64,000 nt of DNA, from the NCBI RefSeq assembly GCF_037975245.1, contig NC_092576.1, positions 4,913,501-4,977,500 on the forward strand, read 5' to 3'. Position numbers and translations under genes: made by a program. Every line of letters starts with the position of its first letter. Positions within the stretch are counted from its first letter, which is position 1. This stretch comes from Apostichopus japonicus (Eukaryota; Echinodermata; Holothuroidea; Aspidochirotida; Stichopodidae). Positions 2,283-64,000 of the stretch are shown here, piece by piece. The notes under the pieces were generated by a model. That model made no database searches. It was not told the origin of the DNA and saw only the letters and a list, made by a program, of their open reading frames with translations.

Positions 2283-2497
2283 ATTTGATATATAAGTCCC
2301 AAAAACTTGCTAACACCCGTAATCGCAATGCATGTTAGGAAATTGATCTTTCACATTTAACTTACTGTAAAATGTATCGTCTGAATATGGTTTCAACAAA
2401 TCGTCTATGACATGAGACATTAGAATAGTAATCTAATTACTGCAACAAAACTCCTATTCTTAACTTTACATACTGTATGTATTTCAAAATCTTTGGG

Positions 2498-5400
2498 TTA
2501 TGATGTAATTGCTTTGTAGTACGTCAAGTTCGGATTCTCTCTGTTTATTACGATGTCGTGGTTTTCATTGGCCGGTTCAAGGTCATGATACTCATGATTG
2601 TCACTCGATACTGTGATATCTTCAGTAAAACAATCAGCTGTAACAATTTGAGCTGATGGACCCGGTGGATGTATTTCATTGTTGATCGTGGAAACATCTG
2701 TGCAAGAACATCGTGACTTTATCCTGCCAATTAAAAATAATAGAATCAGTCATTTCACCTCTGAAATGGCTAGATAACGTAAAGTCGTAGGTAACTATGT
2801 AAAGGCGCAACGCCGTTTCTTCTTTTCTGTGTAACTATGAGAGCAATTTCATATATCAGAAAATCAAAGTCTATATCCGATTTTTTTAAAATTATGACTT
2901 GACATCTAAACTTCCCGTTTAGTAACACAATTATAACCACTAATTGCTGGAGCAGAGAGAATTGGAAACCCACACAATGACATACGGACTCACACACGCA
3001 CGCAGACACACAAGACACGTTTTGACCCTCAATCAGTCATGGACTTCCAGCCACCCTGGCACACCCGCCATTGGTTACACCCCTCCCTGAATGTAGCTAT
3101 ACACAGGAAAATTAACCATGTCACTGTTGCAATGGCAACTGAAATATCTCCATATGTTCCAACTGGCAAAGGAACTACAATATCTCATCATCTCTATGGG
3201 AGCGATGAGATAACAAGTATAATTAAGTATAATTACAATACCCATTATATACACTAGGTGGTTAATTAGTTATAACTTTAACATTCATCAGATACACTTG
3301 ATGGTTAGTTTAATAGTTAGTTATAACTGGAATGCACCGTAACACACGTCATGCACACTAGGTGGTTATACTTAGTTATAACTGTCAATACACTATAACA
3401 CACATCATATGCACTGCATGATTAATTAGTTATAACTTCAATACACCGTAACACACGTCATGTACACTAGGTGGTTACTTAGTTATAACTGTCAATACAC
3501 TATAAAACACATCATGTGCACTGCATGATTAATTAGTTATAACTTCAATACACCATAACACACATCATGTACACTTGGTGGTTAATTTGGTATTACTACC
3601 AACACACTGTAAGGAATGTCACAAACATACAAGATATAATGTAATTATGATAACTTCTTTATTTATAAGATCAAATACTACCTGCTGATAAAAAACCCAC
3701 ATGTAAACGCTAGCAGTATTAAGAGGAAGCAAATGACGGCAACCATGAATGACCAAACCAAATCCTTCTTCTCGGCATCATCTAGCAACAGATCGTAATA
3801 TGAAAAATGGAGAGATATTTATATCAAATTATCTCATAAATAAAGTTAACTTTAGTTCATTAGATATGTGGTTTCATATGGTATGTTCTTCTTCATACCT
3901 GTATTTAACAAAACTTATGCAGTAACTAATGTTAAGAATGTATTTGGAAATGATACATTCATCTTTAATTTTCTGTCTAAAAGAACTTGGGCATGACTCA
4001 ATGTGAAGCTCACCACTTAAACTGACCTATTTTATCATTGACAAAATTAAAGAGTTCTTCAAGGCATGCACTTACGGGTGGTATTAATTTACAGGTGTTT
4101 TACACCCAAAGACTTAACATTACTTACTTTATGTTTTATTAAAGAGTCTTCATATAGTAACGATGAAATACACAATTATGATACAACAAACTATATTTAC
4201 TACTATATTGCTATCCTAGTCATTTAAACATTTCGGTGTCTTAGCCTTGTATGAAAATCCCATCCCGGCGATCGCCATTGTCTACCGTCTACCTCTCATC
4301 GTAGGGAAATGTTCATTAAGCACTTTCAACACCATATATATTGGTTACTGATTGATTGATTTGCAATTTTTATCGAACAGTTTATTATTTATTATTTTAT
4401 CCCGATTAGCTTTAGAAGTGATTTATTCAGACCGTATTAATTATCTTCACTTCCACAACATTTGTTTTTAGTTTTGCAAAAGGTAGGCGTAATGAGAACT
4501 TATGAAAGCTTCAATGCAGTTGAAAGAGTATAATTTTAAAAGCGAGGCTACTTCATTAAGTAATTCTTGATTTGTTTTTCGTAAAGCCCAATATCCATTA
4601 CATATTCACCTGAGCTCTCAAAGATGATAAAGTTGATAGTCAGGTTCTGACTGACATATGCTATCCCTCTAAACTGACATGAAATATTGACGTGAGTTCC
4701 AGCTGGTAGTAGATGTAATGTAGATTCTGAGTCTGTGGTGTTTAGCTTCTCCTTGTTTGGTTTGTATAGTACAGTGTGTACATTGGATGGGTCTACATCT
4801 TCACCATTCACAACCCACGTTAGGCTAGCAGGTGGTCTTGATCCAACCGCCAAACATGTTATCTCCAGAGGCTCGCCCGCTTTTACCACGTGATTATATG
4901 TACTTCGCGGATCACTAAATGTTTGCTCGTCAAATGACAACAAAAGCTCTGGGATCACTGAAAAAGGAAATAATCTAAGATATTTTTAAGTTGTCATTAA
5001 CACTTTGTTTTAATATTTTATTAATGATAGCTTATATATGTCGAGAAAGACGCTGATAAAGTAATTTTACCGCTCATGCTATATGCTAGTCCTATATGGT
5101 ATCATTTTTTAAATATTAAAGAAACCACAGAGGATGAAGTTCTCTCAAAATATGTTGCTAAAAACTTGACAACCACTGCCGTTACATGAAGTAATTAAAA
5201 CTGGAAGATATCATTTAATAAGAGTTGCAAGAATCTGTATTCTAGACGTCATCTATATCTTCCTAAGCTAACTGTTCGGTGCAATAAACACAGTGTAACC
5301 CAAAGTATCCTTCAATATAACATAGTTTATGAAAACCCTTTACAAAAAACACATTCATATACAGAGCTGCTCTTTTTATCCATGTTGGACTATTAAAGCC

Positions 5401-7301
5401 ATTGTTATAATATGTCTACTCTTTCATCTTTTGTTTATTTGATTTTGTGTTCAATGTTTCGTTTACGAAACATGACCTCACTTTCTTTTCTTTTTTTATT
5501 GTCGCTATTCCTTTTTCTGAATGTTAACTTCGAACGATTACTATTTTTTATAATTTGCGTAAAATATCACCTGCAAACACAAGTGACCTAAAGTAAGAAG
5601 TTCTCATCGATCGAGATACACACACATGACAATGTCGCTAAATATATACACAATAAGTACTATACTAACATCGTCTATTATTGCACCCGTTGGGGTGACA
5701 AGTATTGCAAGAGCAAGGTCCAAACAACTTTCTGGGTGAGAGAAACAGCAGTGTTGTAATACTTCTAACGCTTGTGTTTGAGAAACTTAAAATCTATGAG
5801 GGTAGCGCATTTGATCCCAAGGGTATGTCCTTCTACTCAGATAAAACGGTACATGTTTCAGTTTAAGTTTGACTTTAATAATGAAAATAATTTGGAATTA
5901 TTACAACAAAAATTACATAATACTAAACACAGGATTATTCCTAAGTTTTATGTCCTTGGTATTAACTAATAAGTAACAAATATTGTAGGAGCAGGACTCT
6001 AACAACTCCCTGGTAAGATAAACAATAGCATTGTAATACTGACTTTATAAACAAAAATAATATGGAATTATTACAACAAAAATTACTTAATACTAAACAC
6101 AGGATTATTGCTAAGTTTAAAGTCCTTTGTATTAACTAGTAAGCAACTTATAAGTTACAAATATTGTAAGAGCAGGACCCTTACAACTCGATCCCTGGTA
6201 AGATAAACAATGCCTGGTAATACTGACTTTATAAACAAAAATAATTTGGAATTATTACAACAAAAATTACTTAATACGAAACACAGGATTATTGCTAAGT
6301 TTTAAGTCCTTGGTGTTAACAAGTAAGTCACTAATAAGTAACAAATATTGTAAGAGCAGGACCCGAACAACGCCTCTTAAGATAGAAAATAGCATTGTAA
6401 TATTGTCTTTATAAAAAAAGGAATTATTACAACAAAAATTACTCAATACGAAACACAGGATTATTGATAAGTTTTAAGTCCTTGGTATTAACTAGTAAGT
6501 AACTAATAGGTAACAAATAGTGTAAGAGCAGGACCCGAACAACTTCCTGGTAAGATAGAAAATAGCATTGTAATGCTGACTTTATAAAAAAATGGAATTA
6601 TTACAACAAAACTTACTTAATACGAAACCCAGGATTATTGCTCAGTTTTAAGTCCTTGGTATTAACTAGAAAGTTACTAATAAGTAACAAATAGTGAAAG
6701 AGCAAGACCCATACAACTCCCTGGTAAGAAAGACAGAAGTATTGTAATACTACTTAATATTGAGAAACTTACAATCTATAAAAGTAGAGCATTTGATCCC
6801 AGAAATATCCTCCTTTTACTGAGATGCAACTGTACATGTTTCAATACAAGCCTAACGTCATGGATGAAAATATTAAGAAAATATTTAATACAGGATTATT
6901 TTTAATATTTAGGTCCTTGCCATTAACTAGGACTGTCAATTCCTAACACGACAGGGAGTTTTAATGTTTATTTACTTACCTTCTATTGTCACGTTATAGC
7001 GCACAACATGGGTATAATTACGGGTACATCTATACAATCCTTGATGATTGAATGTAACATCCAAGATTGATAATGAGTAGTTATTTGATAAATGGACACC
7101 CGACAAAAAATAAACCAGAAATTCATTTGCAAATATGACTCGATCGTTAAGAAACCATTTGTTTCCTTTTGTCGCAAAACCATTACATTCCAAGATTACA
7201 GAATCTCTTTCGACCACTCTGACTGATATTGGGTTTTTAAATCCATTAACACCGGCAAAGTTGAAAAAAATCAAGATGATTTTCAAACAATGTCTCTCCA
7301 T
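2498..7301 (-). CDS. Type 1 two-Ig receptor, complete (gene A)
   Basis: Four exons on the minus strand: 7301-6980, 4957-4610, 3781-3682 and 2723-2498, giving a predicted 331-aa type I membrane protein. Every intron is GT-AG and the phases are 1, 1, 2. Residues 1-19 are a signal peptide. Ig1 (about 20-107) has the Cys of ILECN, Trp of NKWF and Cys of LYRC. Ig2 (about 108-223) has ITC, LTWVV and ISC, with a C2-like pattern. A helix at about 232-255 crosses the membrane. The 74-residue tail has EYHDL and ends LTYYKAITS, where Thr324-x-Tyr326-x-x-Ile329 fits an ITSM. Several NxS/T sequons lie in both Ig domains. I chose Met at 7301 because type 2 genes start at the same place; an upstream Met (7313) is in frame. 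Family knowledge suggests an inhibitory-type receptor. The ligand is unknown. Exon 3 appears to use an acceptor 18 nt downstream of the one used in type 2, whose AG is AT here. Confidence 0.85.
3240..3610. repeat. ~54-bp minisatellite in intron 3 of gene A
   Basis: Imperfect tandem units alternate motifs such as GGTTAATTAGTTATAACT and ACACACATCAT. About seven units are visible. The same family sits in the third intron of every type 1 and type 2 copy and differs in unit number from copy to copy. Confidence 0.8.
5700..6950. repeat. ~175-190-bp tandem repeat in intron 1 of gene A
   Basis: The phrase TTGTAAGAGCAGGACCC recurs in variant form near 5701, 5981, 6161, 6341, 6512 and 6690, each followed by ACTTTATAAA, GGAATTATTACAACAAAA and CACAGGATTATT blocks. 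The spacing is 175-190 bp. Type 2 introns carry only one or two copies, so the array expanded within type 1. Confidence 0.8.
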
Positions 7302-14109: not shown

Positions 14110-17100
14110 TTATGATGTAATCTTTTTGTAATATACACAGTTCGGATTCTCTCTGTATATCTGCCTGCTGTAGTTTTCATTTGACTGTTCCATCTCCTGA
14201 TAATCCTGATTGTCATTAGGAGATGTCACATGGTCGGTAAAATAACCATGTGTTACGGCTTTGTGACATTCAGTTGTCATAATTTGAGCTGATGGACTCA
14301 ATGGTTGCGGTTCATTGTTGATCGTGGAAACGTCTGTAGTCGAGCATTGTGAGGTATTCCTGCGAATTAATAAAAATAATATAATTATTCATATCACGTC
14401 TGAAAAAGCTTGAGAAGATAATTTGCAGAGGCAACACGGTAATGAAACAACGCCGTTTCTTCGTTTTGTGTATCTAAGATGAAAATCAGAAAATATATTT
14501 TATACTGGGTGATTAATTAGTTAAAACTATATACACTACAATACACATCATATACACTGGATGGTTAACTAGTTATCACTGCAATACACTATACCACACA
14601 TCATAAACACTGGATGGTTAACTTAGTTATAACTGCAATACACCGTAACAAACATCGTATGCGATGGATAGTTAATTAGTTATACCTGCAACACATTATG
14701 ATACACATCACATACACCGGATGGTTATAACTAGTTATAACTGCAATATACCATAACACACATCATAAACACTGGATGGTTAACTAGTTATAACTGTAAT
14801 ACACTATAACACACATCATTAACACTGGATGGTTAACTAGTTATAACTGCAATACACCGTAACCCGCATTATATGCACTGGATGGTTTATCAGTTATAAC
14901 TACAACACACTAAATACATATTGTATACACTGGATGGTTTATTAGTTATAACTGCAATACACCACAACACACGTCATGTACACTAGTTGGTTAATTAGTT
15001 ACAACTGCTAACACACTGTAACAATGTCATGTACACACATATGATATCATGTAATTATGTTAACTTCTTTATTTATAAGATCAAATACTACCTGCTGATA
15101 AAAATCCCGCATGTAAACGCTAGCAGTATTAAGAGGAAGGAAATGACGGCAACCAATGACCAAACCAACAAATCTGAATCCTTGGTCTCGACATAATCTT
15201 GCAAAGAATCATCTTCTGAAACTATGGAGGGATAAATTATAACAAATTCATGTCTCAACTAAAGTTAACTCAATACTTTAGGAATATAGTTGTACGATAT
15301 TATCTTCTTCAATTTTCTGTTCAATTGAGCTTATGTCCGAGTCATGTGAAGGACACCTTTTATACTGAGCTATTTTCACTTTGGCAAACCCAACGTTGTT
15401 GTAAAAGGCATGCACCTAAGGGTGATTTAAATGTACCCGTCGCATGTTTCACACGCAAAGGCTAACAGTTCATTACTTATCTTAAGTTTTTCTTAAACGG
15501 AAATGTTGAATGACAACGATAACAGTAGAAACAAATAGCGTTTCTAGTATCGTAATTGTGTATTTTATTGTTGTAAGAAAAGGACTTTTCAATTAACTTG
15601 AGAAAGCATTGCTGTCGTCAATGTTCATCATCTGCATGAATGTTAGGGAAATGTACATTAAACACAACACTATAGATATTGATAATTGATTGATTGATTT
15701 ACGTTGACTACTTAGTAGTTTAACTTTAGTAATTATTGATGATAGCCGGAAAGGTTATCTTTACATCCAAAAGACTTGTTAATTTGGCTAAATGAAGGCC
15801 TAAGGTAAACTTACTATAGCACTAACAAACGGGAAGTGTATAATATTAAAGTCGAGACTTATTCATTAATGATTATGAATTTAAGTTTTGTATAAGTTAA
15901 TGTAGTTTACCTGATATATCTGAGATCCCAAAGAAGATGAAGTTGATGGTCAGGTTCAGACTGACTAATTCTATCCCTTTAAACTGACATGAAATGTTAA
16001 CGTGAGTTCCAGTTGGTAGTAGATGTAATGCAGATTCCGAGTCTGTGGTGTTTAGCTTCTCCTTGTTTTGTTTGTATGGTACATTGTGTACATTGGGAGG
16101 GTCTACATCTTCACCATTCACAACCCACGTTAGGCTAGCAGGTGGTCTTGATCCAACCGCCAAACATGTTATCTCCAGAGGCTCACCCGCTATTACCACG
16201 TGATCATATGTACTACGTGGTTCACTAAATGTAATCTCGTCAAATGACAACGTTAGCTCTGGGATCACTGAAAAAGGAAATAATTCAAGATTTTTGTTGA
16301 AATTAACAATTTTTGTTAATATTTTATCACTATTTCACAAATGTCAAGAAAAACGTTGAATGTAGCCATTTGAACGCTCATGGAATTAGCTCTCCCTGTA
16401 TGGTGTCCTATTTTTCATGTTAATGAAAAACAGAGTAAGAAGTTCTCTCAAAGTAGTGTGCTGAAAACTTGACAACCATTGCCTTTAAGTCAATAAAGCT
16501 GCAGGAAATGATTTTACAAAACCTTCAAAGAACATTTATATTTTAGAAGCTATCACCTTTGTTCTAGACTGACTGCTGTGGGCTATACAACAAGGTACAA
16601 CCTACAATATCCTGCAATGTTACATAATTTTAGAATTATACTCCTTTAAAAAACACGTTTTTATACAGAAATGCTCATTTGATCCACCTTGGACTTTTAA
16701 AGCCATTGTTATAATCTGTGTACTCTTTCAAAATTTGTTTATTTGATTTTGTTCTCAATTGTTCGTTTACGAAACAAAACCTCACTTTCTTCAATTTTTG
16801 GTAATTGTCTTATTCCCTTTCTAAATCTTAACTTCTATGTTTCCTATTTTACTCAGATAAAACTGCACATATTTCATTGTAATTTTGAATTTATGAGTGA
16901 AACTAATTTGGAATCATTACAACATAAACTACATGATACAAAACAGGGGATTATTGCTAAGTGTTAGGTCCTTGGAAGTAACTCGAACTGTAAATTCCTA
17001 ATAAGTAACAGATATTGTAAGAGCAGGACCCACAGCAACTCCCTCGTAAGAGAGACAGCATTATTGCAATACTAATACGCTCATGTTTGAGAAATTTACA

Positions 17101-17643
17101 ATGTAGGAGCGTGGAGCATTTGATTCTAGGTACGTCCTACTTCTACTGAGATACAAATGTACATGTTTCAATACAAGTCTAACGACATAGATAAATAATT
17201 TGGAGTTATTACAACAAAATGACATAATATGAAATACAGGATTATTTCTAATTTTTAGGTCCTTGACATTAACTAGGACTGTCAATTCCTCACACGACAG
17301 GAAGTGTTTTTATTTACTTACCTTCTGTTGTCACGTTGTAGCTCACAACATGGGTATTATAACGTATACATCTATACAATCCTTGATGATTGAATGTAAC
17401 ATCTGAGATTGATAATGAGTAGTTATTTGATAAGTGGAAACCCGACAAACGATAAAGCACAATTGTATTTGCATATATGAGTTGATCGTCAAGATACCAT
17501 TTGTTTCCTTTTGTCGCATTATCATTACATTCCAAGATCACAGAATCTCTTTCGACCACTCTGACTGATATTGTATTATGAAATCCATGAAAACCGGCAC
17601 AGTTGAAGAAAATCAAAAAGATTATCAAACAATATATCTCCAT
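14110..17643 (-). CDS. Type 2 two-Ig receptor, complete (gene B)
   Basis: Exons on the minus strand: 17643-17322, 16267-15911, 15215-15092 and 14359-14110, phases 1, 1, 2, predicting 350 aa. Met at 17643 starts MEIYCLIIF, a signal peptide of about 19 residues. Ig1 has ILECN, NKWYL and LYRC. Ig2 has ITC, LTWVV and ISC. A stalk of acidic residues (EDDSLQD) leads to a membrane helix at about 243-266. The 82-residue tail has four tyrosine sites of interest: DYQEM (YxxM, a PI3-kinase SH2-type site), ENYSRQ, IYREN (YxN, Grb2-type) and the C-terminal CVYYKKITS, where Val343-x-Tyr345-x-x-Ile348 fits an ITIM. Compared with type 1, exon 3 begins 18 nt earlier, at TTTCAG. Signalling roles are inferred from motifs only. 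Confidence 0.87.
14505..15035. repeat. ~54-bp minisatellite in intron 3 of gene B
   Basis: Nine or so imperfect units of the family GGATGGTTAACTAGTTATAA followed by CTGCAATACAC and ACACATCAT. Same family as in the type 1 introns, but a different unit count and variant order. Confidence 0.85.
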
Positions 17644-23501: not shown

Positions 23502-26500
23502 CTACTTAGAGTGATAAAGTGTACGGTCATGGCTTACTGAGTGCATATTCTTCTCATATATATTATCTGCACCTATCTCCTGGTACTCATCCTCAGCATT
23601 TTCTTCAATAAAATAACTTTCGCAGTTTTCTGTTTGTAGTTCACTTCCATCACTATCGAACATCTCATCTGGCCTTTCTTGTTCGTCATTTGTCACACAA
23701 CCGTCCATGTTGAAGGCTTGTGGATTTTTCTTTAGTTTCCTTTCAATCGAATAGAAATATAATTTAAGAGAGGAGAGGAGAGGAGAGGAGAGGAGAGGAG
23801 AGGAGAGGAGAGGAGAGGAGAGGAGAGGAGAGGAGAGGAGAGGAGAGGAGAGGAGAGGAGAGGAGAGGAGAGGAGAGGAGAGGAGAGGAGAGGAGAGGAG
23901 AGGAGAGGAGAGGAGAGGAGAGGAGAGGAGAGGAGAGGAGAGGAGAGGAGAGGAGAGGAGAGGAGAGGAGAGGAGAGGAGAGGAGAGGAGAGGAGAGGAG
24001 AGGAGAGGAGAGGAGAGGAGAGGAGAGGAGAGGAGAGGAGAGGAGAGGAGAGGAGAGGAGAGGAGAGGAGAGGAGAGGAGAGGAGAGGAGAGGAGAGGAG
24101 AGGAGAGGAGAGGAGAGGAGAGGAGAGGAGAGGAGAGGAGAGGAGAGGAGAGGAGAGGAGAGGAGAGGAGAGGAGAGGAGAGGAGAGGAGAGGAGAGGAG
24201 AGGAGAGGAGAGGAGAGGAGAGGAGAGGAGAGGAGAGGAGAGGAGAGGAGAGGAGAGGAGAGGAGAGGAGAGGAGAGGAGAGGAGAGGAGAGGAGAGGAG
24301 AGGAGAGGAGAGGAGAGGAGAGGAGAGGAGAGGAGAGGAGAGGAGAGGAGAGGAGAGGAGAGGAGAGGAGAGGAGAGGAGAGGAGAGGAGAGGAGAGGAG
24401 AGGAGAGGAGAGGAGAGGAGAGGAGAGGAGAGGAGAGGAGAGGAGAGGAGAGGAGAGGAGAGGAGAGGAGAGGAGAGGAGAGGAGAGGAGAGGAGAGGAG
24501 AGGAGAGGAGAGGAGAGGAGAGGAGAGGAGAGGAGAGGAGAGGAGAGGAGAGGAGAGGAGAGGAGAGGAGAGGAGAGGAGAGGAGAGGAGAGGAGAGGCT
24601 TGTAACCTGTTGATATTAGTATTTATTGGAAACGAATGACCGACGAACGACGACAGATTCAAACCAGCACACGTTTTTTAAACTGTCGATATTGATTAAT
24701 ATCTACTAATAATTCAACTATGATTGCCTACCTCCCGCAAAATAATCCACATACAAAAGTGGCCATTAACACGAAGAAACAGACGCTGGAAGAAACCGAT
24801 ATCAACAACATCCACTCTTCTGTCGTGTTATTAAACCAGTTACCTTCGGAAAGAAGGACATCAGCTGCGAGTACAAAACATTAAATGGAACGATCTGAAG
24901 TCAAATATTCTCAAGAGGACACAGTCACTTAATAATCACTGTTTATGTAGAAAGTCCTCACCTCTAACATCCAATGCACAACATTTAAGATAAATATTGT
25001 TAAAATCATAACATCATTGAGAAAGTCCAAATTGGGGAAAATTGCATAATAAAATAATAAAAGCAATGGGATTTTACATGTTCTCGTAGTTAAGCTGCTG
25101 TACTAAACTCTTCTGATGCAAGATGCATCTGAAGTTTATATCTGATATACCTTACCCCGTAGTTCAATGTCAAGGTTATCTACAGATATATAATATTTGG
25201 ATTTTGGACTTTGGACTGGTTTGTGAGACACATCGTCATAGACAGCATTTATAGTTCGAAGACAAACCTACATTCAATACTTATAAAATCAAAGTTTGAA
25301 TAGGAGATGGGTCAACTGGTTAACTGACTTGAAAGCTCTACTTATTTAAAGTTTAAAGTTCTAACATGGCGTTTGAATATTTTCCGCATCAGGCTTTAAA
25401 TAGTAAGGGCTTGATAAATCTTACATAAGATGACAAGGATATTGCATCAAAGGTCTTCTACATTCTCTTCAGCCCAGCGGTTAAATTTAATAAAAACAAA
25501 TGTCACACTGCAAATTTTCCCTCCTACCTCTAAAAAAAGGTCATGGGTATGGGATGAACGTGTCCACTTACCCTCTTACTTAAATTCGATTATTTGAGTC
25601 AGTTGATAAACGATAAACAGTGCTTCCTCCCTTTCCAAAAAACAGAGATATAATATAGACAAATTAGAGACTGCAGTAGATAAATTATAAATTGATCGTT
25701 GGCTTACCTTGGAAATGTTGATCAAATATCCCACAAGGGACAAGGATGGTCACGTTGGAGCTGATAAACTCTATTCCTCTAAATTGACACGAAACATTGA
25801 CCTCATCACCAGAAGGAAGGAGATGTAATGTGGATGTTGAGTCGGTAATGTTTGGCCTCTCTTTGTTTGGTGTGTACATAACATCACGTACATTGGGATT
25901 GTCTAGGCTTACATCTTCGTCATTAACGACCCACGTTAGGCTAGCCGGGGGTCTCGATCCAACCGCAAGACATGTTATCTCGATTGGCTCTCTCGGATCA
26001 ATGACAATGATTTCCGGTGAGTGTCTCATCATACGGATAAACGTGTCATTGCCGAATGACAATGTAACCTCTGGGATAACTGAATAGTGAGAGATATATG
26101 CTACAAATTAAAATTGCACTGTAATGCTAATGTGCACAAAATTGATAAATAAACTGAAACTGACAATTAATCAATACATCGGAAGTTTTCACTACGGATG
26201 CTTTACACATGTTTCACTTGTTACTGAATATTCATGTAACCTCTTGCCGTTATTTTCTCGTCATGCCCATAAATGTATAATGATATATTAGAAATAGTAA
26301 TCGTTTGATAAATAAATTGAGACTGAAAATAAGAAATATTTTTAGAAGTTTAGAACTCTTTCATTTTCACAGCAGATATATCAAACATGGTTGACTATAT
26401 AGAAACTGAGTATTCATTTAAGTCACGTGTTGTAGTCACTTCATAGTCGTGCACATTAATACATAAATATCGTGTTACTTGATACCTTGGGGCATATCAG

Positions 26501-38062: not shown

Positions 38063-41000
38063 TTATGATGTAATCTTTTGGTAATATACACAGTTCGGAT
38101 TCTCTCTGTATATCTGCTTGTTGTAGTTTTCATTGGACTGTTCCATCTCCTGATAATCCTGAATGTCATTAGGAGATGTCACATGGTCGCTAAAATAACC
38201 ATGTGTTACGGCTTTGTGACATTCAGTTGTCATCCTTTGAGATGATGGACTCAATGGTTGCGGTTCATTGTTGATCGTGGAAACGTCTGTACTCGAGCAT
38301 TGTGAGGTATTCCTGCGAAGTAATAATAATAATATAATTATTCATATCACGTCTGAAAAAGCTTGAGAAGATAATTTGCAGAGGCAACACGGTAATGTAA
38401 CAACGCTGTTTCTTCGCTATGTGTATCTTAGATGAATATCAGAAAATATATGTATACTGGATGGTTAACTAGTTATAACTGCAATACACTATTCGTAAAT
38501 GTAAGTTGGCCTGACGTTTCGATCAGGATCTTCTTCAGAGGCTAAATGACTAGTGGGCGAGCACTTGTCATCTAGCCTCTGAAGAAGATCCTGCTAGGAT
38601 CGAAACGTCAGGCCAACTTACTTTTACACATTCTCTTACACAGGCTCTCTAGTGGATAAGCAGTTTGCTAACAATTTTATGTTATTTTGCAATACACTAT
38701 AACACACATCAAACACTGAATGGTGAACTAGTTATATAACTGCAATACAACGTTACACACATCGTATGCACTTGATGGTTAATTAGTTATAACTGCAATA
38801 CATTATGATACACATCATATACACTGAATGGTTAACTAGTTATAACTGCAATACACTATAACACACATCGTAAACACTGGATGGTTAACTATAGTTATAA
38901 TTGCAATACACTAGAACACACATCAAACACTGGATGGTTAAGTAGTTATATAACTGCAATTCAACGTAACACACATCGTATGTACTGGATGGTTAAATAG
39001 TTATAACTACAATACATTATGATACACATCATGTACACTGGATGGTTTAACTAGTTATAACTGCAATACACTATAACACGCATCATAAACACTGGATGGC
39101 TAATCAGTTAATTACTACAATATACTATAACACACATCATAAACACTGGATGGTTAATCAGTTAATAAGTACAATATACTCAAATACACATCAAAGCACT
39201 GGATGGTTAATCAGTTATAACTACAACACACTAAATACACATTATATACACTGGATGGTTTATTAGTTATAACTGCCAATACACCCTTACAATGGCACAT
39301 ACACACATGTTAACCACATGTTAACTTCTTTATTTTCTAAGATCAAATACTACCTGCTGATAAACAACCCGCATGTAAACGCGAGCAGTATTAAGAGGAA
39401 GGAAATGACGGCAACCAATGACCAAACCAACAAATCTGAATCGTTTTTCTCGGCATCATCTTGCAAAGAATCATCTTCTGAAACTATGGAGGGATAAATG
39501 ATACCAAATTCATGTTTTAAGTAAAGTTAGTTCAATACTTTAGGAATATAGTTGAACGATATGATCTTCTTCAATTTTCTGTTCAATGGAGCCGAATCAA
39601 TGTGAATCACATCTTTTATACTAAGCTATTTTCACTTTGGCAAACCTAACGTTGTTTTTAAAGGCATGCACTTAAGGTCGTTATAAATGTACCAGTCACA
39701 TGTTTTACATGCATAGACTTAATAGTTCATTACTTATTTGATGTTTTCTTAAAGAGTCCTTTTCTTACAATAATGAACAATTAATTTTGGATTTAATTTT
39801 CGTAATGTTAATGTAGTTTACCTGATTCATCTGAGCTCTCAAAGAAGATAAAGTTGATGGCCAGGTTCTGACTGACTAATTCTATCCCTTTAAACTGACA
39901 TGAAATGTTGACGTGAGTTCCAGTTGGTAATAGAAGTAATGTAGATTCTGAGTCTGTGGTGTTTTTTCTCTCCTTGTTCTGTTTGTATAGTACATTGTGT
40001 ACATTGAATGGGTCTACATCTTCACCATTCACAACCCACGTTAGGCTAGCAGGTGGTCTGGATCCAACCGCCAAACATGTTATCTCCAGAGGCTCACCCG
40101 CTTTTACCACGTGATCATATGTACTTCGCGGTTCACTAAATGTATGCTCGTCAAATGACAACGAAAGCTCTGGGATCACTGAGAAAGGAAATATCTAAGA
40201 TATTTTGTAAGTTGTACTTACATATTATATCACTCTTCTTTCACATATGTCAAGAAAAACGTTGAATGTAGCCATTTTACTGTCATGGTATTTGCTGTTG
40301 CTGTATTGTGTCATATTTTACATGTTAATGAAAAACAGAGTAAGAAGTTCTCTCAAAGTAGTGTGCTGAAAACTTGACAACCAGTGCCTTTAAGTCAATA
40401 AAGCTGCAGGAAATGATTTTATTAAACCTTCAAAGAACATTTATATTTTAGAAGCCATCACCTATGTTCTAAACTGACTGCTGTGTGCTATACAATAAAG
40501 TACAACCTACAATATCCTGCAATATTACCTAATTGTAGAATTATACTCCTTTAAAAACACGTTTTAATACAGAGCTACTCATTTGAACCATGTTGGACTT
40601 TTAAAGCCATTGTTATAATCTGTGTACTCTTTCAAAATTTGTTTATTTGATTTTGTTCTCAATTGTTCGTTTACGAAACATAACCTCACTTTCTTCAGAT
40701 TTTGGTATTGTCTTATTCCTTTTCTGAATCTTAACTTCTACCCTTCCTATTTTACAAGTATTGTAAGAGCAAGGTTATCAAAAACTTCCTGGTGAGAGAA
40801 ACATCAGTGTTTTAATTTGGAATTATTACAACAAATATTACAAAATACTAAATACAGGATGATTCCTAAGCTTTAGGTCTTACTAGGACTTTACATTTCC
40901 AACAGGTAACAAAAATTGTAAGAGTAGGAACTTAACAACTCCCTGGTAAGAGGGACAGCATTAATGTAATACTACTTACGCTTATGCTTGAGAAATTAAC

Positions 41001-41530
41001 GAACTGGGAGCGTGGAACAATTGATTCTAGATATGTCCTTCTTCTACTGAGATACAACTGTACATGTTTCAATAAAAGCTTAACGCCATGAATGAAAATA
41101 TATTAAACATATATTCAATACAGTATTATTCTTAATTTTAAGGTCCTTGACATCACATAGGACTGAAAATTCCTAACACGACAGGAAGTTTAATGTTTAT
41201 TTACTTACCTTCTGTTGTAACGTTGTAGCTCACAACATGGGTATAATTACGGCTACATCTATACAATCCTTGATGATTGAATGTAACATCTAAGATTGAT
41301 AATGAGTAGTTATTTGATAAGTGGACACCCGACAAAGATGAAACCTGAAATGTATTTGAAAATATGATTCGATCGTAAAGAAACCATTTGTTTCCTCTTG
41401 TCGCAGAATCATTACATTCCAAGATCACAGAATCTCTTTCGACCAGTCTGACTGATATTGAATTATCAAATCCATGAAAACCGCCAAAGTTGAATAAAAT
41501 CAAGAAAATTATCAAACAATATCCCTCCAT
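38063..41530 (-). CDS. Type 2 two-Ig receptor, complete (gene E)
   Basis: Exons 41530-41209, 40178-39822, 39477-39354 and 38312-38063, phases 1, 1, 2, predicting 350 aa. It is the duplicate of gene B, with all frames open. Signal peptide MEGYCLIIF...; Ig1 with ILECN, NKWFL and LYRC; Ig2 with ITC, LTWVV and ISC. The stalk is EDDSLQDDAEKND, and the helix ends AFTCGLFISR. The tail keeps DYQEM, IYREN and CVYYQKITS (ITIM fit). Differences from gene B cluster in the middle of Ig1 (after NKWF) and around the TVLYK-type loop of Ig2, with few in the helix and tail. It looks functional. Confidence 0.87.
38455..39290. repeat. ~54-bp minisatellite in intron 3 of gene E
   Basis: Largest copy of this array. 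About twelve units are visible, interrupted by an insertion of about 200 bp (38493-38688). Confidence 0.85.
38493..38688. mobile_element. Insertion with hammerhead-like inverted repeat
   Basis: Long arms at 38501-38550 and 38567-38621 are near-perfect reverse complements separated by 16 bases. Each arm, read outward, contains CTGAAGA, a GATC-type hairpin, then GAAACGTC, which recalls the hammerhead ribozyme core (CUGANGA...GAAA) of Penelope-like elements, with one extra A before the hairpin. The insertion lies within the minisatellite, so the phrase GCAATACACTAT occurs on both sides. It is absent from gene B. Confidence 0.6.
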
Positions 41531-47291: not shown

Positions 47292-47573
47292 GTCCTGTAT
47301 TACTAGCGAGTAGTTTTCCGACAGAGAGACACCTTCTATTGGATGGGTGTTAATATAGTTGAAGTAAAGCAATTCACCGTCAAACCACCATAGTTTAGTT
47401 CTTTTCTTCTCAGATATATCACATTTTAAGATCACATATGAACTAAGATGAACCACCTTGCGTGATACTTCAGTATTGGCTCTTACAATCTTAACTCTTA
47501 GCAAACCAGTAACGATAAATAAAACCAAGACTTTCAGATGTATCCTATCCATGATGACAATTTTGAAACTCAT
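47292..47573 (-). pseudogene. Type 3 receptor remnant: 5' part of exon 1 only (gene G)
   Basis: Minus strand from Met at 47573: signal peptide, Ig1 strands through ILKCD, KLWWFDG and NYSLVIQ, as in gene C. The exon is cut at that point, before the second cysteine, and runs into the mobile element at 47291. The open frame continues through the element to a stop at 47046, giving a 175-residue chimera with no disulfide partner, Ig2, helix or tail. The rest of the gene is deleted. The upstream flank is intact, so transcription could persist. Confidence 0.8.
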
Positions 47574-49890: not shown

Positions 49891-50993
49891 TTATGATGTA
49901 ATTGCTTTATAGTACACCACGTTTGGATTCTCTATGTTTATCTCGATGTCGTCGTTATTATTGGACGGTTCAAGGTCATAATACTTATGATTGTCACTCG
50001 ATACTGTGATGTCTTCTGTAAAACAATCAGCTGTAAAAATTTGAGCTGATGGACCCGGTGGATGTATTCCATTGTTGATCGTGGAAACGTCTGTGCACGA
50101 ACATCGTGACTTTATCCTGCCAATTAAAAATAAAAGAATGAGTCATTTCACGTCTGAAAAAGCTAGAGAACGTAAAGTCATAGGTAACTCTGTAAAGGCG
50201 CAACGCCGTGTCATCTTTTCTGTGTAACTATGAGAGCAATTTCATATATCAGAAAATCAAAGTCTATATCCGATTTTTTTAAATTACGATTGGACATCTA
50301 AACTTCCCGTTTAGTAACGCAATTATAACCACTAATTGCAGGAGCAGAGAGAAGATATAATTGGAAACCCACACAATGACATACGGACTCACACACACAC
50401 GCACATACATACACACGACACGTTTTGACCCCTCCCTCAGTGATGGACTTCCAGTCACCCTGATATACCCGCCATTGGTTAACCCCTCCCGAATGTAGCT
50501 ACTCAGGAAAATTAACCATGGCACTGTTGCAATGGCAACTGAAATATCTGTATATGGTCCAACTGGCAAAGGAACTACAATATCTCATAATCTCTATGGG
50601 AGCGATGAGATAACAAGTATAATTAAGTATAATTACAATACCCATCATATACACTAGGTGGTTAATTAGTTATAACTTTAACACTCATCAGATATACTTG
50701 ATGGTTAGGCCTAGTCAGTTATAACTGGAATGCACCGTAACACACGTCATGTACACTAGGTGGTTATACTTAGTTATAACTGTCAATACACTATAAAAAG
50801 AATTAACCAGAAATTCATTTGCAAATATGATTCGACCGTCAAGAAACCATTTGTTTCCTTCTGTCGCAGATCCATGACATTTCAAGATCACAGAATCTCT
50901 TTCGACCAGTCTGACTGATATTGGGTTATCAAATCCATTAAAACCGTCAAAGTTGAAGGAAATTAAGAAGATTATCAAACAATATATCTCCAT
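49891..50993 (-). pseudogene. Type 1/type 2 fusion remnant (gene F)
   Basis: What is left: exon 4 of type 1 at 50116-49891 (tail intact, ending VVYYKAITS), the start of its intron 3 minisatellite, and then, from about 50800, the 5' two-thirds of a first exon (Met at 50993, MEIYCLIIF, ILKCH, NKWFL, IIFANEFLVN). The Ig2 and membrane exons and the second cysteine of Ig1 are absent. The upstream flank is of type 2. In the first two units the matching points lie about 10-14 kb apart, so one deletion between a type 1 intron and a first exon explains it. The join is near 50795-50805, with ATAA-type microhomology. Confidence 0.8.
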
Positions 50994-56726: not shown

Positions 56727-57000
56727 CTACTTAGAGTGATAAAGTATACGGTCATGGCTTACTGAGTGCATATTCTTCTCATATATATTATCTGCACCTA
56801 TCTCCTGGTACTCTTCCTCAGCATTTTCTTCAATAAAATAACTTTCGCAGTTTTCTGTTTGTAGTTCACTTCCATCACTATCGAACATCTCATCTGGCCT
56901 TTCTTGTTCGTCATTTGTCACACAACCGTCCATGTTGGAGGCTTGTGGATTTTTCTTTAGTTTCCTTTCAATCGAATAGAAATATAATTTAAGATAGTAG

Positions 57001-57618
57001 AGGAGAGGAGAGGAGAGGAGAGGAGAGGAGAGGAGAGGAGAGGAGAGGAGAGGAGAGGAGAGGAGAGGAGAGGAGAGGAGAGGAGAGGAGAGGAGAGGCG
57101 AGGCGAGGCGAGGCGAGGCGAGGCGAGGCGAGGCGAGGCGAGGCGAGGCGAGGCGAGGCGAGGCGAGGCGAGGCGAGGCGAGGCGAGGCGAGGCGAGGCG
57201 AGGCGAGGCGAGGCGAGGCGAGGCGAGGCGAGGCGAGGCGAGGCGAGGCGAGGCGAGGCGAGGCGAGGAGAGGAGAGGAGAGGAGAGGAGAGGAGAGGAG
57301 AGGAGAGGAGAGGAGAGGAGAGGAGAGGAGAGGAGAGGAGAGGAGAGGAGAGGAGAGGAGAGGAGAGGAGAGGAGAGGAGAGGAGAGGAGAGGAGAGGAG
57401 AGGAGAGGAGAGGAGAGGAGAGGAGAGGAGAGGAGAGGAGAGGAGAGGAGAGGAGAGGAGAGGAGAGGAGAGGAGAGGAGAGGAGAGGAGAGGAGAGGAG
57501 AGGAGAGGAGAGGAGAGGAGAGGAGAGGAGAGGAGAGGAGAGGAGAGGAGAGGAGAGGAGAGGAGAGGTGAGGAGAGGAGAGGAGAGGAGAGGAGAGGAG
57601 AGGAGAGGAGAGGAGAGG
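57001..57618. repeat. (AGAGG)n array with an inner (AGGCG)n block
   Basis: 618 bp in intron 3 of gene H. Positions 57098-57266 consist of about 34 AGGCG units in a row, flanked by AGGAG units, with one AGGTG near 57568. The gene C array has no such variant block. Confidence 0.97.
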
Positions 57619-60369
57619 CTTGTAACCTGTTGATATTAGTATTTATTGGGAAACGAATGACCGACGAATGACGACAGATTCAAACCAGCACACGTTTTTT
57701 AAACTGTTGATATTGATGAATATCTACTAATAATTAAACTATGATTGCCTACCTCCCTCAAAATAATCCACATACAAAAGTGGCCATTAACACGAAGAAA
57801 CAGGCGCTGGACGAAACCGATATCCACAATGTCCACTCTTCTGTCGTGTTATTAAACCAGTTACCTTCGGAAAGAAGGCCATCAGCTGCGAGTACAAAAC
57901 ATTAAATGGAACGATCTGAAGTCAAATATTCTCAAGAGGAAACAGTCACTTAATAAACACTGTTTATATAGAAAATCCTCACCTCTAACATCCAATGCAT
58001 AACATTTAAGATAAATATTGTTAAAATCATAATATCATTGAGAAAGTCCAAATTGGGGAAAATTGCATAATAAAATAATAAAAGCAATGGGATTTTACTT
58101 GTTCTCGTATTTAAGCTGCAGTACTAAACTCTTCTGATGCAAGATGCATCTGAAGTTTATATCTGATATACCTTACCCCGTAGTTCAATGTCAAGGTTAT
58201 CTACAGATATATAATTAATGGATTTTGGACTTTGGACTGGTTTGTGAGACACATCGTCATAGACAGCATTTATAGTTCGAAGACAAACCTACATTCAATA
58301 CTTATAAAATCAAAGTTTGAAAAGGAGATGGGTCAACTGGTTAACTGACTTGAAAGCTCTACTTATTTAAAGTTTAAAGTTCTAACATGGCGTTTCAATA
58401 TTGTCCGCATCAGGCTTTAATAGTAAGGGCTCGGTAAATCTTTCATAAGATGACAAGGAAATTGCATCAAAACTCTTCTACATTCTCCTCAGCCCAGCGG
58501 TAAAATTCAATAAAAAAAAATGTCACATTGCAAATTTTCCCTCCTACCTCTACAAAAAGGTCATGGGTATGGGATGAACGTGTCCACTTACCCTCTTACT
58601 TAAATTCAATTTTTTGAGTCAGTTGATAAACAGTGCTTCCTTTCCAAAAAAACAGAGATATAATATAGACAAATTAGAGACTGCAGTAGATCAATTATAA
58701 ATTGATCGTTGGCTTACCTTGGAAATGTTGATCAAATATCCCACAAGGGACAAGGATGGTCACGTTGGAGCTGATAAACTCCATTCCTCTAAATTGACAC
58801 GAAACATTGACCTCATCTCCAGAAGGAAGGAGATGTAATGTGGATGTTGAGTCGGTAATGTTTGGCCTTTCTTTGTTTGGTGTGTACATAACATCAAGTA
58901 CATTGGGACTGTCTAGGCTTACATCTTCGTCATTAACGACCCACGTTAGGCTAGCCGGGGGTCTCGATCCAATCGCAAGACATGTTATCTCGATTGGCTC
59001 TCTCGGATCAATGACAATGATTTCCGGTGAGTGTCTCATCATACGGATAAACGTGTCATTGTCGAATGACAATGTAACCTCTGGGATAACTGAATATTGA
59101 GAGATATATGCTACAAATTAAAATTGCACTGTAATGCTAATGTGCACAAAATTGATAAATAAACTGAAACTGACAATCAATCAATACATCGGAAGTTTTC
59201 ACTACAGATGCTTTACACATGTTTCACTTGTTACTGAATATTCATGTAACCTCTTGCCGTTATTTTCTCGTCATGCCCATAAATGTATAATGATATATTA
59301 GAAATAGTAATCGTTTGATAAATAAATTGAGACTGAAAATAAGAAATATTTTTAGAAGTTTAGAACTCTTTCATTTTCACAGCAGATATATCAAACATGG
59401 TTGACTATATAGAAACTGAGTATTCATTTAAGTCACGTGTTGTAGTTACTTCATAGTCGTGCACATTAATACGTAAATATCGTGTTACTTGATACCTTGG
59501 GGCATATCAGTTCGGGAATATGTTTTGCTTACGTGATGCACATTCTATTAAAATTAGACAACACTATTATCATTGTTTGTTTCTTACAATCAACAATAAA
59601 TAAATTGTTAATGCAATAGTAACATGTACGTGTCTTTTAGCATAAAAAAACTGTTCACGCTGTTTAGCAATAAATTATCAAAGATTGGTTCACTTCACAT
59701 TCAAGACTTGATAAATATTAAAGTATTTCTCTTTGTCATAACACCCTTCAGAGATGAAAATTTGGGTAAGGATAAATATATATACACACATCAGGAAATG
59801 CTATACATGGTGGTTATTTTGAATAATTTCGAAAAATATAAATGTACATTTGCCGGATGACAGTTGTTTCGCTGAAACTTTGTTACTTCATATGAAGCTG
59901 TATACTTTGATAGCTGCCTAATCCGCAGATTGGAGTATCACCAGACGTTACATTGAATGGCAACGCCATCTTAGCTGTTGCGCGTATAGGTCTACTCATA
60001 TGCTCGCATTATATTAGACTTCCCTTAATCCACATGGGCCATCCTGTCTCCATCACTGAGTATAACATCATCAAAGGAGCTCCAAAATGATATTTACTTA
60101 ACGTTCTAAGAAAAAGCGCCGAAAAGATGAAATAACAATTACATATCAATAAAGTTATGATCATGTTTTTTGAATAAGTCAATGTATATGATATATAGTT
60201 TATGTTAATACAGGGACCATGGCCTGCACTGACTTATGACTTACCTGCTACACTCAAATTGTAGGCCACATTTAGTGCATCCTCGCATGTGCAGGTAAAC
60301 AATCCCTCGTGCTGGAACATAACTTCCTGTATAACTAGCGAGTAGTTTTCCGACAGAGAGACACCTTCC

Positions 60370-60698
60370 AAGTGCGTAGGAGCCAGGGGGGGCTGGGGGG
60401 CGCCAGCCCCCCAGTGAAAAATATGGGGGGCGGAGGCGAAAGTATCGTTCCGCCCCCCCGCTCCACAAGTCAGAAAACCCCTTTTTCATTTCCAAATCAG
60501 AAAAAAATCTCATTTGAAGCACCAAATTGCATCTAAGGCCAGGTGAAAATGCAAAATTCTTTACAAAATGGAGTGGGTGTTGAAGTGTGCTATATTGCAC
60601 CAAATTGCATCTGAGGCCACCTAGAAATGCAAAAAAATTCCAAAGGGGAGGGGGACACCCCCTCCCCTTAGACCCCTCCCCCAGGCCGGCCATCAGCA
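60370..60698. mobile_element. GC-rich TIR-type element inside exon 1 of gene H
   Basis: It begins GTGCGTAGGAGCCAGGGGGG, and its interior matches the element at 46935-47291 in reverse orientation (GATGCAATTTGG-type phrases, C-rich runs, GGCCGGCCATCA near the right end). The right terminal inverted repeat appears truncated. About 70 bases of exon sequence present in gene C are missing at the site. Confidence 0.7.
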
Positions 60699-60865
60699 TT
60701 CTCAGATATATCACATTTTAAGATCACATGTGAACTAAGATGAACCGCCTTGCGTGATACTTCAGTATTGGTTCTTACAATCTTAACTCTTAGGAAACCA
60801 GTAACGATAAATAAAACCAAGACTTTCAGATGTATCCTATCCATGATGCCAATTTTGAAACTCAT

Positions 60866-62253: not shown

Positions 62254-63321
62254 GGTGACAGCTGTTGGTTGTTCGACTGTCTGTTATTGTACTTGCAACA
62301 AATCGTTTTTTTTCCACATAAGTTAAGCCAAACTTTATAAAATATTCACCGGATGAGTTCCGTTCCCTCTGCTAAAGGTTAAAGTTGGCTATACGTTCTC
62401 GAAAGATTGGTAAGTTAGTGGTAGATATACAATAGCACAAACCTGATACAACTTAAACGGAGATTCAAGAAACTGAATAAGCTGAATAATTTATTTTTAA
62501 GTTTTATTTCTTGGCATCGATATTGAAATTTGACTTATACAACTCATTATTCGTGATAAATCTTTACACATGTTGTTCATTATTTTACTATTAAACAAGT
62601 AATAAAACGATGATCTCTAAATTAGGCAGTCAAGTTTAGACAAAAAACAACATAGCAAGTCAATACTTATTTTTTATTTATTATTACTTTTATGATAGCT
62701 AGATTAAAGCTAAAGAATGCTGAGAGGAATGATGATTGAAACAAGAAACAAATGCTTTAGACTGATTCATAAATGGACGTCGATTAGACGTTGATGAAGG
62801 CAGATTGCAAATCGACAAACCATCACAATTAATCACACTGAACAACAGTTGTAGGTTGCTTGCTGTTAAAGTTGTTGGAAAACTAATCCACGGGGACAAC
62901 ATTGAACTCCTAATGTTAACGCTGCAATGACTAAGCAATGACGTAAGGTTCATTCAGGATATATTTCCGTCGTTTATAAAATAGTGAAGGTGAAATATTT
63001 GTTGATGCAGTCGGGTCCTCTTAGATGAGTTATCTTGGAGAGCAAAATATCTTGATGTTTGAATATTTGGAGAACAGAGATGAGAGGTGGAAGTACAAAC
63101 TTGTCGAATCGGTATATAAGTCCCAAAAACTTGCTAACACCCGTAATCGCAATGCATGTTAGGAAATTGATGTTTCACATTTAACTTACTGTAAAATGTA
63201 TCGTCTGAATATGGTTTCAACAAATCGTCTATGACATGAGACATTAGAATAGTAATCTAATTTCTGCAACAAAACTCCTATTCTTAACTTTACATACTGT
63301 ATGTATTTCAAAATCTTGGAG
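62254..63321. other. Intergenic between gene H and gene I
   Basis: Copy of 28991-30046. The type 1 block begins at about 63113. No gene supported. Confidence 0.5.
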
Positions 63322-64000
63322 TTATGATGTAATTGCTTTATAGTACACCACGTTTGGATTCTCTATGTTTATCTCGATGTCGTCGTTATTATTGGACGGT
63401 TCAAGGTCATAATACTTATGATTGTCACTCGATACTGTGATATCTTCTGTAAAACAATCAGCTGTAAAAATTTGAGCTGATGGACCCGGTGGATGTATTC
63501 CATTGTTGATCGTGGAAACGTCTGTGCACGAACATCGTGACTTTATCCTGCCAATTAAAAATAAAAGAATGAGTCATTTCACGTCTGAAAAGGCTAGATA
63601 ACGTAAAGTCATAGGTAACTATGTAAAGGCGCAACGCCGTTTCTTCTTTTCTGTGCAACTATGAGAGCAATTTCATATATCAGAAAATCAAAGTCTATAT
63701 CCGATTTTTTAAAATTATGACTGGACACCTAAACTTCCCGTTTAGTAACACAATTATAACCACTAATTGCAGAAGCAGAGAGAGGAGAGAATTGGAAACC
63801 CACACAATGACTTACGGACTCACACACACACACACTTATACACGACACGTTTTTGCCCCTCCCTCAGTCATGGACTTCCTGGCACACCCGCCATTCGTTA
63901 CACCCCTCCCTGAATGTAGCTATACACAGGAAAATTAACCACGTCACTGTTGCAATGGCAATTGAAACATCTGTATCTGTTCCAACTGGCAAAGGAACTA
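63322..64000 (-). CDS. Type 1 receptor, 3' end only (gene I, leaves window)
   Basis: Exon 4 at 63547-63322 is open from its TTGGCAG acceptor to the stop and encodes the type 1 tail: KYYDLEPS near the middle and VVYYKAITS at the end, where Val-x-Tyr-x-x-Ile fits an ITIM. Intron 3 continues to the window edge and resembles 2724-3200. The membrane and Ig exons would lie beyond 64000, so I cannot say whether the gene is complete. Confidence 0.75.

What the first reader, a model, noticed from the sequence alone, without database searches (positions are those of the whole stretch)
2283..64000. Expanding tandem array of two-Ig, ITIM-type receptor genes in an invertebrate
Seen: at least five four-exon genes and several broken ones, all on one strand, built from three gene types repeated in fixed order. 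Family knowledge: the signal peptide, two Ig domains, helix and ITIM/ITSM-like tail plan is that of vertebrate paired or inhibitory receptors. Inference: an invertebrate inhibitory receptor cluster, possibly for self recognition or pathogen sensing, with fast birth and death of members. I do not recognise it as a named locus.
Basis: partly seen in the sequence, partly recalled or inferred. Interest (0 to 1): 0.9.

Follow-up and report, generated by a model that had tools for sequence, protein, structure and literature searches.

The report
Sea cucumber two-Ig receptor gene array
This stretch of what is almost certainly a sea cucumber chromosome holds repeated sets of three related cell-surface receptor genes, each with two antibody-like domains and a tail carrying signalling tyrosines, suggesting that echinoderms also expanded this kind of receptor by tandem duplication.

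Summary
On the minus strand lie five four-exon genes (four with an intact frame, the fifth frameshifted) and several broken ones, of three types in the order I-II-III. Each encodes a leader, two Ig domains, one uncharged transmembrane helix and a tail with conserved tyrosines. [quoted passage not shown] assembly size, scaffold number and longest chromosome fit the published assembly). The order continues through 17 gene positions over 144 kb, and relatives extend over 4.66-5.97 Mb of a 46-Mb chromosome. Full-length exons stay open despite divergence; pooled pN/pS is 0.53-0.68. Canonical ITIMs occur in 13 of 17 tails read (types I, II), one more is ITSM-like, type III has none; all 17 carry YxxPhi. 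An ITIM in any single tail is not beyond chance, and some plus-strand relatives have lost the C-terminal one; conserved tyrosines are the better evidence. Best reading: a germline-diversified, fast-turnover set of SH2-recruiting, probably inhibitory IgSF receptors. Expression, ligand and sign of the signal are untested. It fails tested features of KIR/LILR, FcoR and CgIgIT. The kind is known; I found no description of this echinoderm version in the paper listings seen.

The parts
2498..7301 (-). g1, type I, intact: E1 7301-6980 (leader+Ig1), E2 4957-4610 (Ig2), TM 3781-3682, tail 2723-2498
   Evidence: joined frame of 331 aa, GT/AG at all junctions
14110..17643 (-). g2, type II, intact: E1 17643-17322, E2 16267-15911, TM 15215-15092, tail 14359-14110
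   Evidence: 350 aa frame
23502..27586 (-). g3, type III, intact: E1 27586-27247, E2 26079-25708, TM 24864-24732, tail 23739-23502
   Evidence: 360 aa frame
30047..34872 (-). g4, type I, all four exons, frame broken in the TM exon (98 nt): E1 34872-34551, E2 32501-32154, TM 31328-31231, tail 30272-30047
38063..41530 (-). g5, type II, intact: E1 41530-41209, E2 40178-39822, TM 39477-39354, tail 38312-38063
   Evidence: 350 aa frame
47292..47552 (-). type III E1 remnant, cut short by an insertion; no E2, TM or tail found
49894..50993 (-). fusion remnant: open type I tail 50118-49894 joined to a truncated E1 50993-50787 whose upstream flank matches the type II genes
56730..60844 (-). type III, broken: E1 split (60844-60701 and 60377-60240) by an insertion, E2 59090-58743 open, TM 57885-57753 with an in-frame stop, tail 56966-56730 open
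63325..63549 (-). type I tail exon, open; the E1 and E2 searches show no exon between it and the type II gene at 5.000 Mb of C16
193..403 (-). type I/II E1 relic with stop codons
17747..17917 (-). E2 relic just upstream of g2 E1 (others near 41633-41866 and 51096-51266)

Best explanation
A tandem array of germline-diversified IgSF receptor genes of a sea cucumber, grown by duplication of a three-gene cassette (types I, II, III; about 27 kb between the first two) with loss of members and exchange of sequence between copies. Shown: gene structure, protein plan, copy map, open frames, shared tyrosines. Inferred: the proteins sit on the cell surface (probably of coelomocytes); the outer Ig1, the more variable domain by residue count, binds a cell-surface or microbial ligand; clustering leads a Src-family kinase to phosphorylate the tail; in types I and II the C-terminal V-Y-Y-x-x-I motif plus the upstream YxxPhi, 24 residues apart in type II, recruits a tandem-SH2 phosphatase (SHP-2-like) and dampens activation. 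Type III, with YQEI and no ITIM, more likely recruits Src-family or adaptor SH2 proteins and may be the non-inhibitory member of each cassette.
For: Intact spliced frames. Ig domains by Pfam and by sequence match to solved Ig proteins. Full-length exons without stops: 22 of 22 E1A, 16 of 16 E2, 9 of 9 T2, against neutral-simulation means of 4.9, 7.1 and 4.7. Pooled pN/pS 0.67, 0.54, 0.53, 0.68, 0.56 for E1A, E2, T1, T2, E2g. Splice donor GTAAG after 24 of the 25 E1 exons that reach their end, GTAAA in the other. Canonical ITIM in 13 of 17 tails read, ITSM-like in 1, YxxPhi in 17 of 17. Among type II tails four tyrosines are invariant in 9 and a fifth in the 8 aligned there; the YxxPhi tyrosine is shared by all three tail types in 5 representatives. 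No charged residue in the hydrophobic core of 9 TM exons. I-II-III order over 17 positions.
Against: No transcript was available to look at. In shuffled tails an ITIM or ITSM appears with P 0.065-0.249. The two type III tails have no ITIM. On the plus strand the 5.966-Mb tail leaves the frame before the motif, the 5.217-Mb tail has lost the C-terminal tyrosine (it has SEYQEI), and the 5.217- and 5.518-Mb tails run past the usual end; four more plus-strand tail matches also stop at residue 72 of the query, and three of six tail matches not fetched carry stops. YxxPhi also fits AP-2 endocytosis, and YQEM fits PI3K. The neutral simulation assumed independent copies and only full-length exons entered it; for T1 and E2g it is uninformative (P 0.50, 0.70). 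C-terminal block conservation in type II was not significant (p=0.07). Four of the 31 E2 matches, all short relics, contain stops.
Confidence: 0.55

Rival explanations
1. Adhesion or self/gamete recognition molecules: the Ig domains bind like domains on other cells, and the YxxPhi tyrosines serve endocytosis (AP-2) or weak SH2 docking, not inhibition.
For: The closest PDB sequences are mostly adhesion proteins: CEA, NCAM2, SYG-2, Roughest, contactin, IgLON. Type III tails have YxxPhi but no ITIM, and some plus-strand relatives lost theirs.
Against: Fast turnover and loose constraint (0.5-0.7) are unusual for developmental adhesion genes (inference). V-Y-Y-x-x-I is kept in minus-strand type I and II tails that are about half identical. 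Weaker PDB matches include Fc receptors, CD80 and CRTAM.
Confidence: 0.25
2. Activating or phagocytic receptors signalling through YxxM (PI3K), YxN (Grb2) and YQEI (Src SH2).
For: Five of nine type II tails have YQEM, the other four YQEI; eight of nine have YREN; type III has YQEI.
Against: No charged residue in the 9 TM exons for an ITAM adaptor; canonical ITIM in 13 of 15 type I and II tails.
Confidence: 0.15
3. A decaying repeat array, mostly pseudogenes without function.
For: Frameshifts, stops, insertions, truncations and a fusion remnant; four of six type III E1 exons broken.
Against: Four intact spliced frames in the window; open full-length exons and pN/pS below 1.
Confidence: 0.05

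Closest known systems
Oyster CgIgIT/CgIgIT2 (Crassostrea gigas)
   Same: Invertebrate single-pass Ig receptor with a tyrosine signalling motif. Two titles in a review's reference list call it an inhibitory receptor or inhibitory signalling (PMC11999971, passages)
   Different: Five Ig domains according to the same review, whose text speaks of an ITAM and ERK activation, at odds with those titles; here two Ig domains and an array of three gene types
Hydractinia Alr family
   Same: Clustered IgSF family, 41 members in one complex (PMC11999971, passages); ITAM and ITIM on candidate genes (PMC12065747, passages)
   Different: Cnidarian allorecognition genes with unusual V-set and I-set domains; here no link to allorecognition is known. 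Alr sequences were not compared
Botryllus FcoR (fester co-receptors)
   Same: Multigene type I receptors with canonical ITIM, hemITAM or core YxxI/L/V tails (PMC12065747, passages)
   Different: FcoR have V-Ig, sushi and two C2-Ig domains and 520-610 aa; here two Ig, no sushi found, 331-360 aa
Vertebrate KIR/LILR and other paired receptors
   Same: Few-Ig single-pass receptors with ITIM tails in clusters with birth and death (recalled)
   Different: No KIR or LILR among the PDB matches shown (Fc receptors, CD80 and CRTAM appear weakly); leader and Ig1 share one exon here, whereas KIR/LILR leader exons are separate (recalled); no charged-TM partner seen
Echinoderm TLR, NLR, scavenger-receptor and Sp185/333 families
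   Same: Large germline-encoded immune families in echinoderms (PMC13428168, passages)
   Different: Other domains; no IgSF expansion in echinoderms is named in the passages read

Membership tests
Immunoglobulin superfamily | Ig domain with conserved cysteines | tested here: met
   Pfam Ig_3, ig, C2-set_2 over cut-off; Cys pairs at 39/92 and 142/201 in types I and II, 44/98 or 100 and 150/211 in type III; no fold model
ITIM receptor | [SIVL]xYxx[IVL] in the tail | tested here: met
   13 of 17 tails read. Misses: two type III, g1 (ITSM-like), and the 5.966-Mb tail, which leaves the frame before the motif. Six further tail matches were not fetched
ITIM receptor | recruits SHP-type phosphatase and inhibits | not testable with these tools
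   no biochemistry or RNA data
Paired receptors | activating partner with charged transmembrane residue and short tail | tested here: inconclusive
   none in the 9 TM exons matched; other TM exons of the cluster were not fetched or are only candidates
KIR/LILR | sequence relationship | tested here: not met
   no KIR or LILR among the 60 shown of 122 PDB matches, nor among 22 and 6; PDB sequences only
KIR/LILR | leader peptide on its own exon(s) | tested here: not met
   E1 carries leader and Ig1 together in the four intact genes; the vertebrate layout is recalled
Botryllus FcoR | sushi domain and three Ig domains | tested here: not met
   Pfam finds Ig only in E1+E2; E1, E2, TM and tail join without further exons; an extra exon in an intron was not searched for with a sushi profile
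Oyster CgIgIT | five Ig domains | tested here: not met
   two Ig exons
Hydractinia Alr | sequence relationship | not tested
   no Alr sequence was compared

The most novel reading that the evidence does not exclude
One sea cucumber chromosome is a chromosome-scale IgSF receptor complex: many clusters share the leader-plus-Ig1 exon, and this 1.3-Mb cluster, with a cassette pairing two ITIM-tailed genes with one YQEI-tailed gene, is an echinoderm counterpart of the vertebrate leukocyte receptor complex that arose on its own.
Probability: 0.3. Interest if true: 0.85.

Novelty: new variant of a known kind. Interest (0 to 1): 0.6.

Why it matters
Echinoderm immunity is described in the review passages read as resting on TLR, NLR, scavenger-receptor and effector families (PMC13428168). 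A clustered, fast-changing IgSF family with ITIM-type tails would add inhibitory or tuning receptors to that picture, and with Botryllus, Hydractinia and oyster would suggest that the Ig-plus-ITIM design was expanded repeatedly. The exact exon map makes it testable in a farmed species whose coelomocytes can be sampled.

Tried and rejected
Diversifying selection on E2 and the tail: g1 and g4 differ by 8% in E2 and tail but 3.3% in introns, which suggested positive selection; but the tail's synonymous divergence is high too (dS 0.136 against dN 0.077), so exchange between copies explains it better. Pooled pN/pS is below 1 in all five exon sets. Duplicated haplotypes as an assembly artefact: the compared copies differ by several percent and carry lesions of their own; unlikely, not excluded for the most similar pairs. 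Transposon origin: the three Ig queries match Ig families and no mobile-element family in Pfam (a weak below-cut-off match to Adeno_E3_CR1, an Ig-like viral domain by recall, was ignored). RNA families above gathering score: none in the window. tRNAs: none.

Dropped rows: E1 copies not covering the query (relics at 4.9137 and 4.9643 Mb of C16, type III fragments), short E2 relics, and truncated tails were left out, so the open-frame counts are for full-length or nearly full-length exons. Six of the 21 tail matches were not fetched; three of those carry stops. E1 in the g3/g8 comparison is distorted by the insertion and not used. I first counted the 50-kb piece as a type I remnant with a missing type II; one search shows a I/II fusion.
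Full report
What is there. Stop-to-stop frames and self-comparison show Ig-like exons on the minus strand repeated through the window. Exons were bounded by reading the DNA and joined: g1 (type I, 331 aa), g2 and g5 (type II, 350 aa), g3 (type III, 360 aa) each give one open frame with GT/AG at every intron and phases 1, 1, 2. g4 (type I) has the same four exons but its TM exon is 98 nt and breaks the frame. This may be real or an error in a T run; two sister copies outside the window read in frame. The rest is broken: E1 of type III cut by an insertion (47 kb), a remnant joining a type I tail (94% and 91% to g4 and g1) to a cut E1 whose upstream flank matches the type II genes (94% and 92%) (50 kb), a type III gene with a split E1 and a stop in its TM exon (57-61 kb), a lone tail (63 kb), an E1 relic (0.2-0.4 kb) and E2 relics just upstream of E1 near 17.8, 41.7 and 51.2 kb.

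Protein plan. Each intact gene has a hydrophobic leader and Ig1 on one exon, Ig2 on the next, a TM exon and a one-exon tail. Pfam finds several Ig families above cut-off in the joined Ig parts of one type I, one type II and one type III gene. The nearest solved sequences are mostly adhesion-type Ig proteins: CEA, NCAM2, RAGE, Roughest, SYG-2 (one protein); contactin-1, CEA, IgLON members for the Ig1 profile; SYG-2 and Roughest for Ig2. Immune proteins appear lower: Fc gamma RIII and CD80, Fc epsilon RI alpha and CRTAM. No KIR or LILR is among those shown.

Whose genome. The window is C16:4913501-4977500 of a 671.58-Mb genome in 35 contigs. Contig C35 is a 16,099-bp mitochondrial DNA. Its genes read through with the echinoderm code (AAA=Asn); no other code was tried, and that the AAA codons fall where COX1 has asparagine is my recall of COX1. 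The genes run COX1, ND4L, COX2, ATP6, COX3, ND3, ND4, ND5, ND6 (reverse), cob, ND1, ND2 (names and the class-level meaning of the order are recalled). The published A. japonicus assembly has 671.60 Mb, 34 scaffolds and chromosomes up to 46.02 Mb (PMC10344927, passages); here 34 contigs besides the mitochondrion and a C16 of 46,036,110 bases. I take it as A. japonicus; the species is an inference.

Beyond the window. E2 DNA has 31 matches, all on C16 between 4.72 and 5.97 Mb. E2 protein has 31 at E up to 1e-6, all on C16 4.66-5.97 Mb, four short ones with stops. The type II tail has 21, all on C16 4.92-5.97 Mb, three with stops. E1A protein has 50 at E up to 0.001, of which the 23 strongest lie on C16 4.66-5.96 Mb. 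Such counts are lower bounds by the tool's own words. Put in order (with for one split E1), the minus strand from 4.916 to 5.059 Mb reads I II III, I II III*, (I/II)* III*, I* II III*, I II III*, I II III (star: broken or truncated by the exons seen): 17 positions. TM exons of two type II copies and TM and tail of three type III copies in this stretch were not fetched. Twelve E1 loci lie on the plus strand at 4.72-4.87 and 5.12-5.96 Mb; of these the gene at 4.789 Mb has no match to the three TM or tail exons nearby, and its best TM candidate is unlike them.

Selection and turnover. Full-length or nearly full-length exons with no stop: 22 of 22 E1A, 16 of 16 E2, 9 of 9 T2; simulated neutral means 4.9, 7.1 and 4.7; P 0.0000, 0.0000, 0.0015 in 2000 runs. 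For T1 (6 of 6) and E2g (5 of 5) the copies are too alike to tell (P 0.50, 0.70). The simulation treats copies as independent, which overstates it, and broken copies were left out. Pooled pN/pS: E1A 0.67, E2 0.54, T1 0.53, T2 0.68, E2g 0.56; pairs with dN above dS: 36 of 230, 13 of 120, 3 of 12, 4 of 35, 2 of 10. So constraint is real but loose, with no overall sign of positive selection. In E1 the stretch around columns 58-66 holds up to seven residues a site, but its pN does not clearly exceed pS. g1 and g4 are mosaic: 0.3% in E1, 3.3% in introns, 8% in E2 and tail (profile); in g2 and g5, by contrast, all four exons differ less than the introns (4.0-10.4% against 16.7%). Exon trees put the type I E1 copies together and leave the type II E1 copies spread out, with weak support for most forks. 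Together this fits duplication, exchange and loss.

Tails. Of the 17 tail exons read, 13 have a canonical ITIM, one (g1) an ITSM-like TYYKAI, and three neither: both type III tails and the plus-strand tail at 5.966 Mb, which leaves the frame just before the motif. The plus-strand tail at 5.217 Mb has lost the C-terminal tyrosine and counts only through SEYQEI; that one and the tail at 5.518 Mb run past the usual end. Four more plus-strand tail matches also stop at query residue 72 and were not read. All 17 have at least one YxxPhi. Shuffled tails give an ITIM or ITSM in 6.5-24.9% of cases, so one motif in one tail is weak evidence. In type II tails four tyrosines are invariant in 9, the fifth in the 8 aligned there, and the sixth is lost in one of 8; the C-terminal block is less variable than the rest only at p=0.07. 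Across five representative tails of the 17, the YxxPhi tyrosine is shared by all three types. None of 9 TM exons has a charged residue in its core. Motif definitions (ITIM, ITSM, AP-2, PI3K, Grb2, Src SH2) and the SHP-2 spacing argument are recalled knowledge.

How it most likely works. The receptors bind a ligand with the outer Ig domain, are phosphorylated by Src-family kinases, and in types I and II recruit an SH2 phosphatase that lowers activation; type III may dock other SH2 proteins. The sequence shows the plan and the shared tyrosines; ligand, cell type, phosphorylation and sign are inference.

What is known. Ig receptors with ITIM-type tails in invertebrates are described for Botryllus (FcoR; PMC12065747 passages), Hydractinia (Alr; same, and PMC11999971 passages) and oyster (CgIgIT; PMC11999971 passages, where the text speaks of an ITAM but cited titles of an inhibitory receptor). 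Nine topical searches of the paper library (one search was for the assembly) showed no title on an echinoderm IgSF-ITIM array; only the 2 to 25 best papers of each were listed, the library lacks most subscription journals, and Hibino 2006 on the sea urchin immune repertoire was not read.

Chromosome view. Outside the cluster, 32 of 40 E1B matches lie on C16, which is 6.9% of the genome (tandem copies are not independent). Of 69 C2-set_2 matches, 28 lie on C16 (five of them in this cluster) and 22 on C12 (150 of 356 candidates scored). A distant copy at 6.72 Mb has, by my reading, a leader-plus-Ig1 exon ending like E1, three C2-like exons and a TM exon; one at 29.2 Mb has a leader-plus-Ig1 and a second Ig exon. 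Pfam support is weak and below cut-off for the two exons of the first that were scanned (E 0.025 and 0.0049). This suggests a larger family on this chromosome.

Noticed in passing
G000 C16 and C12: IgSF exon matches are concentrated on two chromosomes: 32 of 40 E1B matches outside the cluster on C16, 50 of 69 C2-set_2 matches on C16 or C12.
   Followed up: partly
window 23768-24598 and 56999-57618: A nearly pure five-base repeat (831 and 620 bp) sits in the last intron right beside the tail exon of both type III genes, as a giant pyrimidine tract on the coding strand.
   Followed up: no
window 46996-47292 and 60369-60667: The same element of about 300 bp, in opposite orientation and 87% alike, abuts or interrupts E1 of two type III copies; the split E1 at 5.036 Mb of C16 is cut at the same residues as the one at 4.974 Mb, as if inherited by duplication.
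   Followed up: partly
window 10396-11214 (-): ORF with a GIY-YIG domain (E 7.8e-6), probably a Penelope-like element (recalled).
   Followed up: no
window 3317-3587, 14504-15023, 30866-31161, 38688-39284: 53-bp tandem repeats in the TM-to-tail intron of g1, g2, g4 and g5, the four type I and II genes with all exons.
   Followed up: no
window 17747-17917, 41633-41866, 51096-51266: Decayed E2-like exon about 100 bp upstream of E1, as if the genes arose by recombination inside an older gene.
   Followed up: partly
window 28534-29010, 48547-48873, 62017-62283: A repeated ORF of 88-158 aa; no Pfam match for the two copies scanned.
   Followed up: partly
G000 C29 (31,219 bp): Five broken COX1-like pieces with TGA codons on a small contig: mitochondrial insertion, contaminant or misassembly.
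   Followed up: no
L030 and L016: Genes at 4.789 and 4.656 Mb have Ig1 and Ig2 exons of this family but their best TM candidates are quite different, so tails may be swapped between clusters.
   Followed up: partly
L066, L067, L068 (C16 5.518, 5.217, 5.966 Mb): Plus-strand tails have altered C-terminal ends, with loss or change of the ITIM; the plus-strand group may be changing its signalling or decaying.
   Followed up: partly
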